Shown: one piece after another, positions 1 to 60,721 of the stretch
Position numbering within the stretch: the first letter of the stretch is position 1
How the letters are laid out: every line of letters begins with the position of its first letter
Source of the DNA: Evansella clarkii
GTDB taxonomy: Bacteria; Bacillota; Bacilli; Bacillales; Salisediminibacteriaceae
Length of the DNA: 64,000 nt
Reading direction: 5' to 3'
NCBI RefSeq assembly: GCF_002019695.1
Contig: NZ_KV917376.1
Location: 4,164,974-4,228,973 of the forward strand
Translations under genes and position numbers: made by a program
The notes under the pieces: generated by a model
What the model saw: only the letters and a program-made list of their open reading frames with translations
Told to the model about the DNA's origin: nothing
Database searches by the model: none

Positions 1-8
1 ATCGTTTG

Positions 9-835
9 CTGGACAAATTTCAGGGATTCCGTCTGGATTTGTCCAGAATAATTGCTCATTTTTAACCATTTGCCATTTCCTGTTAGTTTATCTGGACATA
101 CCCTGCTGCCCTTCCGCATATTTGTCCAGCAAGTCATTTTTGCTGGTCAAATCTCCTTCGTTCACGACGGATTTGTCCAGATTCCATCGTTTGCTGGACA
201 AATTTCAGGGATTCCGTCTGCATTTGTCCAGAATAATTGCTCATTTTTAACCATTTGCCATTTCCTGTTAGTTTATCTGGACAAACCCTGCTGACCTTCC
301 ACATATTTGTCCAGCAAGTCATTTTTGCTGGTCAAATTCCTTCGTTCACGATGGATTTGTCCAGATTCCACCGTTTGCTGGACAAATTTCAGGGATTCCG
401 TCTGGATTTGTCCAGAATAATTGCTCATTTTTAACCATTTGCCATTTCCTGTTAGTTTGTCTGGACAAATCCTGCTGACCTTCCACATATTTGTCCAGCA
501 AGTCATTTTTGCTGGTCAAATCTCCTTCGTTCACGACGGATTTGTCCAGATTCCATCGTTTGCTAGACAAATTTCAGGGATTCCGCCTGGATTTGTCCAG
601 AATAATTGCTCATTTTTAACCATTTACCATTTCCTGTTAGTTTATCTGGACAAACCCTGCTGACCTTCCGCATATTTGTCCAGCAAGTCATTTTTGCTGG
701 TCAAATCTCCTTCTTTCTCGACGGATTTGTCCAGATTCCATCGTTTGCTGGACAAATTTCAGGGATTCCGTCTGGATTTGTCCAGATTCCATCGTTTGCT
801 AGACAAATTTCAGGGATTCCGCCTGGACTTGTCCA
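9..835. repeat. Tandem array of 38-bp inverted-repeat modules, 185-bp higher-order period
   Basis: Fourteen modules of about 38 bp are visible. Each is CTGGACAAAT, an 18-20 bp centre, then ATTTGTCCAG, so each can form a 9-10 bp stem. Three modules with spacers of 45, 13 and 13 bp make one 185-bp unit; unit starts are near 9, 194, 378 and 563, and two extra first-type modules begin near 748 and 799. Modules whose left arm reads CTGGTCAAAT or CTAGACAAAT are slight variants. The array runs off the left edge, so its full size is unknown. Its rightmost module is the most degenerate, and it ends in unique sequence; 836-998 holds nothing I recognise. The array is free of stops in several frames because of its repeat structure, not because it codes. 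Confidence 0.93.
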
Positions 836-998
836 GAGTAATAACTTTCTTAAAACAGTTTCAATTTAGGGTCTTTTAATGTGACGGATACATCTCCATT
901 TTCACAGGTCTGTCCTTATTAACACTTTCTCTCAGCAAATTTTAAAACCCAGCTATCTGGTTCTACCTGCTGTAACTGTCTACTGTTATCAACAAAAA

Positions 999-1919
999 TT
1001 AATTTTTTTCATAAAATATACTTCTTCCTTTCCCATTCTTTTTATAACGATCAGTTAAATACCTTTGAACAGTTTTCCTGGATATACATCCCCCTGACCA
1101 ATTAAAAATCCTATTCACTGTCAGGGGCTCGTTAGGAAAAAGCAGCTTAAATTCTTCTACACTTCTTTCAATAGCTGACAAATAGAATTCTTCTTTGCTG
1201 CAATGGGAGCACTTTACTCTACCCTGGATACTTACTTCCATCCAGCCCATACAATGGCTGCATACTAAGCCTTTTTTAAGTTTTCTGTAGTTATATTCAG
1301 GAATTTGCATATATGGTGTTTCAGTTTTATGGAGCTTAATGAGCTGATTAGCTATACCCTTTTGCCTGGGATAGATAAAATTTTGGGTATTGTCATCTTT
1401 AAATAGCTTCTTGAGGAATCTGTTTATTTGAGAGGGTAGAATCACAGGCAGGCTTTGAGAGGCGCTGTATAATGTAAACTCCTGGTTAATAAAAATCAAG
1501 TAGGAGTCAACTTTCATGTTTGCTTTCATTTTGTACAGAAGCTGATTCAGCAGATTTTCACTTCTTTTCAGCTGCAGCAGGGGATTTTTAATTTGTTTTC
1601 CAGTGGAAGTGTACCAAGCTTCAGTTTCAATATAATGTTCCCCTTCAAAATTTTTTACTTCAAGCTGGTAAATTCTCTCTGGAGTGAATAATAAGTTATC
1701 CAGCTGAAAGTCTGACTTGTTACACGTTAGAAATAAATCCCTGATTAATAAATGCTCTCTCTTCTGATTGTCCATCAATGCATCGAATTTAAGCTCACCT
1801 TCATAACCTTTTTCTAAATTAATATAATCTTCCATCTGTTCTTCTGTAAACATCATACGAGGACTCAATGTGCGGAGAAATAAAAGTTCACGGGGGGTAG
1901 TGCGGGGTTTTAGCAGCAT
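999..1919 (-). CDS. NERD-domain protein with C-terminal zinc ribbon
   Basis: A 306-residue protein with an N-terminal nuclease-related NERD domain at about 37-150. It shows the family's acidic residues: E40-G-E42, D74 and the ExK pair E87/K89. The NERD fold is related to Holliday-junction resolvase-type nucleases, but activity of Bacillus members is largely untested. A zinc ribbon follows (C220, C223, C237, C240), then a basic tail at about 255-293 that could be a DNA-binding helix pair. The ATG is preceded by AAAGGAGG at 6-nt spacing. It stands alone between the repeat array and a 300-bp gap, so it is probably monocistronic. A DNA-processing role is inferred from the domain only. Confidence 0.82.
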   Translation of the reverse strand: MLLKPRTTPRELLFLRTLSPRMMFTEEQMEDYINLEKGYEGELKFDALMDNQKREHLLIRDLFLTCNKSDFQLDNLLFTPERIYQLEVKNFEGEHYIETEAWYTSTGKQIKNPLLQLKRSENLLNQLLYKMKANMKVDSYLIFINQEFTLYSASQSLPVILPSQINRFLKKLFKDDNTQNFIYPRQKGIANQLIKLHKTETPYMQIPEYNYRKLKKGLVCSHCMGWMEVSIQGRVKCSHCSKEEFYLSAIERSVEEFKLLFPNEPLTVNRIFNWSGGCISRKTVQRYLTDRYKKNGKGRSIFYEKN

Positions 1920-60662: not shown

Positions 60663-60721
60663 GGCACCGGCGGACCGGGGTCACTCGGACCGGGGTCACT
60701 CGGACCGGGTTCAGCGGTGCC
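60663..60721. repeat. 15-bp GC-rich tandem repeat inside an inverted repeat
   Basis: CGGACCGGGGTCACT is repeated at 60671 and 60686, with a partial third copy at 60701. It is framed by GGCACCG (60663) and CGGTGCC (60715). Its base composition is far above the neighbourhood. The rest of 60554-60850 holds no gene. Confidence 0.85.

What the first reader, a model, noticed from the sequence alone, without database searches (positions are those of the whole stretch)
9..835. Array of 38-bp hairpin modules with a 185-bp higher-order repeat
Fourteen modules CTGGACAAAT-(18-20)-ATTTGTCCAG are placed with spacers of 45, 13 and 13 bp, giving 38+45+38+13+38+13 = 185. Both the modules and the larger unit are copied almost exactly, so the array grew by tandem duplication, yet arms inside modules stay complementary. 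It is not CRISPR: spacers repeat. It could be a multivalent protein-binding locus, a source of a structured RNA or a chromosomal organisation site. I know of no described element of this form.
Basis: partly seen in the sequence, partly recalled or inferred. Interest (0 to 1): 0.8.

Follow-up and report, generated by a model that had tools for sequence, protein, structure and literature searches.

The report
Bacillales TGTCC-capped tandem palindrome arrays
The repeat cluster at the start of the window is one of dozens in this genome and belongs to a widespread but, as far as I could find, undescribed family of evenly spaced DNA palindromes, probably landing sites for an unknown DNA-organising protein or a new kind of selfish repeat.

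Summary
In detail: 14 modules at 9-836, gaps 45/13/13, 185-bp unit. The array starts upstream of the window (24 modules). The genome has 116 exact modules; I fetched 25 places, and 13 of a sister species pair with them.

Relatives carry tandem palindromes TGTCC-N5-N7-N5'-GGACA at 51-52-bp pitch; here the same palindrome straddles the 13-bp gaps. A two-palindrome pattern hits 61 of 397 genomes of the order, reversed control 0, and 3 of 360 others in the class; a similar pair also turned up in Saprospiraceae contigs. Inner stems differ between arrays but covary (0.442 against 0.115, 0 of 500 shuffles) without a G:U signature.

Best reading: a BIME-like, DNA-level array with a new tag, read by an unidentified protein. 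Rivals: selfish hairpins, self-perfecting satellite DNA, RNA. A RAYT-type transposase is not required (47 of 61 array genomes have a match, the two richest none). The binder is unknown.

The parts
9..836 (.). part of the palindrome array that lies in the window: 14 of 24 modules CTGGACAAAT-N17/18-ATTTGTCCAG, 185-bp higher-order unit
   Evidence: whole array G000:C1:4164376-4165809
9..46 (.). module with both arms exact; the other 13 modules start at 92, 143, 194, 277, 328, 378, 461, 512, 563, 646, 697, 748, 799
174..200 (.). TGTCC-N17-GGACA palindrome across a 13-bp gap, the unit shared with the rest of the order; exact cores also start at 358 and 728; the palindromes over the other 13-bp gaps of the window have a core mismatch
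47..91 (.). 45-bp AT-rich gap that turns the 51-bp pitch into the 51+51+83 = 185 unit; further copies 232-276, 416-460, 601-645
999..1919 (-). neighbouring gene with a NERD (nuclease-related) domain; its 3' end faces the array; not thought to be part of the element

Best explanation
The array is one locus of a family of DNA-level palindromic arrays found mainly in this order. The basic unit is a 27-bp palindrome TGTCC-N5-N7-N5'-GGACA repeated every 51-52 bp, separated by a 24-25-bp purine-polar gap with A-rich blocks about one helical turn apart. Shown: the anatomy, the fixed pitch, the covariation of the inner stem, the position between genes and mostly away from divergent promoters, and the slower change of arms than of loops. 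Inferred: an unidentified DNA-binding protein reads the TGTCC/GGACA half-sites, lined up about every five helical turns, together with the palindromic geometry, and builds a cooperative nucleoprotein patch between genes, a BIME-like site for local topology or nucleoid organisation. Arrays grow and shrink by tandem duplication. In the lineage of this genome an ancestral three-palindrome unit with one gap widened by 32 bp (about three turns) spread to 25 fetched places and at least one more.
For: Pitch: of 201 neighbouring distances up to 420 bp in 34 loci, 157 are 52, 33 are 51, 2 are 53; 7 lie at 102-104 or 155-156 and 2 (75, 87) do not fit. In G000/G005 185 of 273 pitches are 51 and 56 are 83. 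Specificity: 61 of 397 genomes of the order against 0 of 397 for the reversed pattern. Covariation 0.442 against 0.115, 0 of 500 shuffles; slides of 1-3 columns give at most 0.120. No G:U signature: of 120 non-Watson-Crick inner pairs 19 are G:T and 21 A:C, 20 expected each; on the purine-rich strand 19 against 15 of 107. In G000/G005 departures in the arms are one-sided, so base identity is what is kept there. Arms change more slowly than loops, gaps and aligned flanking non-coding DNA (pooled over 13 pairs). A-rich blocks in the gap repeat at about 10.4 bp (power 6.66 against 0.23, 0 of 5000 shuffles, 27 units). Position: G000 11 convergent, 13 tandem, 1 divergent of 25; other species 12, 15, 4, with 3 at edges, of 34. 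A terminator-like hairpin lies between gene end and array for 26 of 35 3'-facing gene ends in G000 (lax finder, no chance control).
Against: No binding protein was found, and no gene recurs beside arrays apart from orthologous neighbourhoods and common families (288 ORFs of 59 loci). The 185-bp unit is not a whole number of helical turns (17.6 at 10.5 bp), so strict phasing fails. In G000/G005 the stem across the 13-bp gap shows no covariation. Some N5 complementarity could come from template switching without selection. The strict pattern misses 336 of 397 genomes, so the family is dispensable. One of 13 orthologous pairs has arms less alike than loops (0.91 against 0.96) and one has them equal. 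The purine-rich strand agrees with the coding strand in 21 of 26 tandem settings (p 0.0025; 11 of 14 with p 0.057 alone, 10 of 12), which would also fit transcription or replication direction. The gap profile comes from partly related arrays, so its periodicity may be descent. An inverted doublet of the palindrome in Saprospiraceae contigs looks like a mobile REPIN-type unit and favours the selfish rival.
Confidence: 0.42

Rival explanations
1. Selfish hairpin repeats like REPs/REPINs, copied as single-stranded hairpins by a HUH (Y1, RAYT-type) or other transposase; arrays are amplified by-products.
For: Palindromic, between genes, patchy across genera, up to 171 tandem pairs per genome; variable stems with a fixed cap resemble hairpin recognition; RAYT-type genes are somewhat commoner in array genomes (47 of 61 against 201 of 336, Fisher p 0.01); two contigs labelled Saprospiraceae carry an inverted doublet of the palindrome at 52-bp pitch and a third carries it cut by the contig end, in different surroundings.
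Against: 14 of 61 array genomes, including the two richest (171 and 148 pairs), have no match to the REP-transposase family at E 0.001; no TGTCC palindrome within the 12 fetched RAYT loci; the cap is kept on both arms, unlike the one-sided GTAG/CGTC tag; a fixed pitch between genera is not predicted by hopping of single hairpins.
Confidence: 0.28
2. Neutral bacterial satellite: tandem duplication grows the array and template switching at palindromes perfects the inner stems without selection.
For: Arrays differ in length between sister species (2 against 9 modules in one pair); quasi-palindrome correction is a known mutational process (recalled, from no call).
Against: Pooled over 13 pairs, arms change more slowly than aligned flanking non-coding DNA while loops and gaps change faster; cap and pitch recur in 28 genera (the letters are fixed by the query, the recurrence against a zero control is not); arm departures are not corrected inside G000/G005 modules.
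Confidence: 0.15
3. A structured RNA: arrays are transcribed and the hairpins act in RNA as protein sponge, 3'-end stabiliser or processing sites.
For: Covarying stems; the purine-rich strand follows the coding strand in 21 of 26 tandem settings; strong single-strand folding of the window array (z -15.5 with DNA parameters, 20 shuffles), which any inverted-repeat array would give.
Against: No excess of G:U-type pairs; no Rfam match at the arrays tested; constant 51-52-bp pitch with varying gap sequence is not expected of RNA; terminator-like hairpins lie between many genes and the array (26 of 35, lax finder without chance control).
Confidence: 0.12

Closest known systems
REP / BIME / REPIN repeats (GTAG- and CGTC-tagged palindromes, PMC3733652: passages seen)
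   Same: 20-40-bp palindromes, extragenic, high copy, often clustered, stem sequences differ between groups
   Different: TGTCC/GGACA on both arms instead of a one-sided GTAG or CGTC tag; fixed 51-52-bp tandem pitch; stems vary between arrays of one genome (G147); no consistent transposase partner
CRISPR arrays
   Same: regularly spaced repeats with dyad symmetry
   Different: gaps and loops are copied with the unit rather than unique; stems vary between arrays; cas genes were not searched for
Bacterial MITEs such as Bcr1 or RUP (named in PMC3733652, passage)
   Same: dispersed non-coding repeats with inverted-repeat ends
   Different: tandem arrays at fixed pitch; target duplications not tested
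Eukaryotic satellite DNA
   Same: higher-order tandem units, dispersed related arrays, unit length kept while sequence drifts
   Different: short arrays between bacterial genes; the resemblance is one of form only (recalled)

Membership tests
REP/BIME (GTAG- or CGTC-tagged) | 20-40-bp palindromic extragenic repeat in high copy | tested here: met
   27-bp palindromes, up to 171 tandem pairs per genome; between genes in the contexts read, by a mechanical ORF caller
REP/BIME (GTAG- or CGTC-tagged) | GTAG or CGTC tag at one end | tested here: not met
   of 183 exact palindromes in 34 loci, one has GTAG and none has CTAC, CGTC or GACG in the four bases next to either end; both arms carry TGTCC/GGACA (fixed by the query)
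REP/BIME (GTAG- or CGTC-tagged) | partner RAYT transposase in the genome or next to the repeats | tested here: inconclusive
   47 of 61 array genomes and 201 of 336 others have NF047646 matches at E 0.001; none of 12 fetched RAYT loci holds the palindrome
CRISPR | near-identical repeats separated by unique spacers | tested here: not met
   gaps and loops recur with the unit
Rfam RNA families | match at gathering score over the array | tested here: not met
   none at the arrays in the window or in 18 related loci
MITE | target-site duplication around each copy | not tested
   orthologous gaps without an array were seen at two loci in six species, but no duplication analysis was made

The most novel reading that the evidence does not exclude
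Bacillales carry a hidden chromosome-architecture code: evenly pitched palindromes read by shape (a TGTCC cap plus any self-complementary stem), on which an unknown protein assembles a regular nucleoprotein fibre in the quiet gaps between genes. Because only the cap, the pairing and the pitch are kept, ordinary repeat searches miss the family.
Probability: 0.2. Interest if true: 0.88.

Novelty: new variant of a known kind. Interest (0 to 1): 0.7.

Why it matters
A family found in 61 of 397 sampled genomes of a well-studied order, with up to 171 tandem palindrome pairs in one genome and no description in the paper listings I saw, would be an unrecognised layer of bacterial chromosome organisation or a new class of selfish DNA. 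The cap, covarying stem and 52-bp pitch give a sharp signature for finding it in cultivable strains and fishing for the protein.

Tried and rejected
CRISPR: rejected, gaps are copied with the unit. Phage or plasmid origin: blastn of window 1-840 found nothing in the phage or plasmid collections; the exact module is in 0 viral contigs, the two-palindrome pattern in 2, which carry the same pair of palindromes, 53 bp apart, in opposite orientation and with a different stem. A scan of genome contigs with the exact module gave 15 stretches, each with one exact module. I first took all for chance; on re-reading, 11 of 15 have no TGTCC-N16/18-GGACA palindrome, L021 has one adjoining, and the three labelled Saprospiraceae carry TGTCC-N17-GGACA palindromes: two complete doublets at 52-bp pitch (L008, L013) and one cut by the contig end (L012). 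The distance between the two palindromes is partly set by that query, the outer arms are not. This lowered my best reading from 0.45 to 0.42 and raised the selfish rival from 0.25 to 0.28.

RAYT as necessary partner: not supported. A gene travelling with the arrays: none beyond orthologous neighbourhoods, common families and arrays read as ORFs. Strict helical phasing of the 185-bp unit: does not hold. Literature: nine searches; several matched hundreds or thousands of papers and only 7-20 rows each were listed (none, one). Passages of PMC3733652 were read; all other papers were seen as listings.

Rows dropped: of 38 loci L094-L131, four were left out of the 34 representatives (L096 no core, L099 and L100 from G000/G005, L101 overlapping L095). 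Three of 34 are edge cases in the context tally, and one of 15 tandem loci had no clear polarity. L044 (one module) is left out of the G000 orientation count. The model search listed arrays that I did not fetch: at least one in G000 (near 2.40 Mb) and six in G005 (capped list). G004 was not read at the two orthologous loci.

Limits: G000 orientation was called from the 13-bp gaps and is weak for some arrays; several of the 34 loci come from sister species, so shuffles overstate independence; each pattern-fetched locus was chosen by one pair with 24-26 bp between palindromes; the 47-of-61 table was tallied by hand from two listings.

Full report
WHAT IS THERE. The window opens inside an array of modules CTGGACAAAT-N18-ATTTGTCCAG. 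Fourteen lie at 9-836 with gaps 45/13/13 and a 185-bp unit (TRF 4.3 copies, 96%); chance expectation for the fixed 38-bp pattern is 0.01 against 13 found. The array starts 598 bp upstream of the window and has 24 modules.

NOT A SINGLE LOCUS. The same genome has 116 modules with both arms exact, reversed control 0. I fetched 25 places of it (one, L044, is a single module) and 13 of a sister species G005; the model search lists at least one more in G000 and six more in G005. In the first 37 places there are 310 modules, weak ones included: 299 of 310 have an 18-bp loop, and of 273 gaps 189 are 13 bp and 60 are 45 bp. Arrays share arms and geometry while loops and gaps differ; across arrays the loops of modules 1, 2 and 3 and the 13-bp gap (CAAAT...TTTTT) keep a weak consensus, so one ancestral unit was dispersed and then diverged. 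The 13 G005 arrays pair with G000 arrays by flank alignment; for L031/L052 only part of the flank aligned.

CONSTRAINT. For the 13 orthologous pairs, comparing each module with its best match by loop, identity is arms 93.6%, loops 79.3%, 13-bp gaps 84.3%, 45-bp gaps 77.4%, aligned flanking non-coding 89.6%, coding 92.7%. Pooled, arms change more slowly than the rest of the array and than flank. One pair (L037/L048) goes the other way (arms 0.91, loops 0.96) and one (L033/L051) is equal (0.94). Within arms, departures are one-sided: at the freest position, of 142 distinct arm pairs, 51 are one-sided and 12 two-sided where independence predicts 9.6. The same holds across the 13-bp gap (129 distinct palindromes). 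So in G000 and G005 what is kept is the base sequence, not base pairing.

THE DEEPER UNIT. A covariance model of the triplet matched 7 of 35 genomes of the family. In G001, G002, G007 and G034 the locus inspected is a tandem array with 52-bp pitch. The G026 hit (L096) looks like a degenerate run of similar hairpins but has no TGTCC core and no tandem repeat was detected in it. The common core of the four is TGTCC-N17-GGACA, which in G000 is the palindrome across the 13-bp gap. Two such palindromes in tandem were found in 61 of 397 genomes of the order, in 28 of 135 genera, up to 171 per genome, with 0 of 397 for the reversed control; in the class sample in 7 of 38 genomes of the own order and 3 of 360 others, all of one family. 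Beyond the class I made only the scan with the exact module. Three of its 15 stretches, labelled Saprospiraceae (another phylum, from recall), carry the palindrome: two complete doublets at 52-bp pitch and one cut by the contig end. Breadth outside the class is therefore open.

ANATOMY OF THE FAMILY. In 34 loci the stem is TGTCC plus five further base pairs closing a 7-nt loop. TGTCC/GGACA are fixed by the query; the inner five are not. They form Watson-Crick pairs in 136 of 170 cells against 59.9 after shuffling, 0 of 5000, and by the pair counter the covariation score is 0.442 against 0.115 (0 of 500), at most 0.120 when slid. Sister species among the 34 make this less independent than it looks, but stems such as TTCAT/ATGAA, GAACT/AGTTC, AGTAG/CTACT, TCAAA/TTTGA and TTTTG/CAAAA are plainly separate, and one genome (G147) carries several kinds. 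Neighbour distances cluster at 52 (157) and 51 (33) of 201 up to 420 bp. Thirty of the 34 loci were fetched by one pair with 24-26 bp between palindromes, so part of this is selected, but the other distances are free.

DNA OR RNA. Non-Watson-Crick inner pairs show no excess of G:T or A:C (19 and 21 of 120, 20 expected each; 19 and 15 of 107 on the purine-rich strand), whereas RNA stems usually tolerate G:U (general knowledge). The gap is purine-polar (0.72 against 0.58 expected), with A-rich blocks near gap positions 1-3, 12-15 and 21-24 (27 units), about one helical turn apart. A 25-bp gap resolves the period poorly (power is also high from 9 to 13 bp), and shared descent contributes. The 52-bp pitch is close to five turns. 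The 83-bp step of G000 is close to eight, but the 185-bp sum is not integral at 10.5 bp.

POSITION. G000: 11 convergent, 13 tandem and 1 divergent gene pairs of 25. Other species: 12, 15 and 4, with 3 edges, of 34. In tandem settings the purine-rich strand is the coding strand in 10 of 12 and 11 of 14 (p 0.057); together p 0.0025. Neighbours look like ordinary chromosomal genes, judged by eye from the sequences; next to the window array is a NERD-domain gene. Terminator-like hairpins lie between gene and array for 26 of 35 facing 3' ends, by a lax finder without chance control.

MECHANISM. The caps, the pitch, the helical spacing of A-rich blocks, the lack of wobble and the scarcity of divergent settings point to DNA bound by a protein array. 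What remains unexplained is why inner stems pair: recognition of an extruded or single-stranded hairpin would need it; template switching would give it for free. I weigh a BIME-like protein-bound array at 0.42, selfish hairpins at 0.28, self-perfecting neutral satellite at 0.15 and RNA at 0.12.

COMPARISON. The nearest kind is REP/BIME. It fails the tag criterion (1 of 183 palindromes has a listed tag next to an end), and its partner transposase is not required (47 of 61 with a match, the two richest without). I therefore call it a new variant of a known kind, not a member. Rfam has no match at the arrays tested, and the rows listed by nine literature searches held no description of it.

Noticed in passing
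L008 5355-5433, L013 5361-5439, L012 from 4987 (contigs labelled Saprospiraceae): A TGTCC-N17-GGACA palindrome doublet at 52-bp pitch with GCAAC/GTTGC-type stems; the two halves are nearly inverted copies, as in a REPIN; L012 is cut by the contig end.
   Followed up: partly
L098 (G002) about 1275-1380: Beside the TGTCC array lies another short motif around CGGGAA with direct repeats 42 bp apart and sub-steps near 21 bp by eye; possibly a second phased intergenic repeat family.
   Followed up: no
L024 and L036 (G000): The same array with a 136-aa gene and an IS110-like transposase gene (named by eye) occurs twice in inverted orientation about 2.1 Mb apart, a duplicated segment carrying an array.
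   Followed up: partly
L094 (G001) 758-862: AT-rich tandem repeat TTTTGGAAAAATTTTTTT of about 18-19 bp, some 200 bp before the 52-bp array.
   Followed up: no
window 60671-60713: 2.9 copies of CGGACCGGGGTCACT about 580 bp from the 5S rRNA gene at the end of an rRNA operon.
   Followed up: no
window 34896: A lone CTGGACAAAT half-site outside the array.
   Followed up: no
L144 4632 and L145 7390 (viral contigs): Two viral contigs carry the same pair of TGTCCCC...GGGGACA palindromes 53 bp apart, in opposite orientation.
   Followed up: partly
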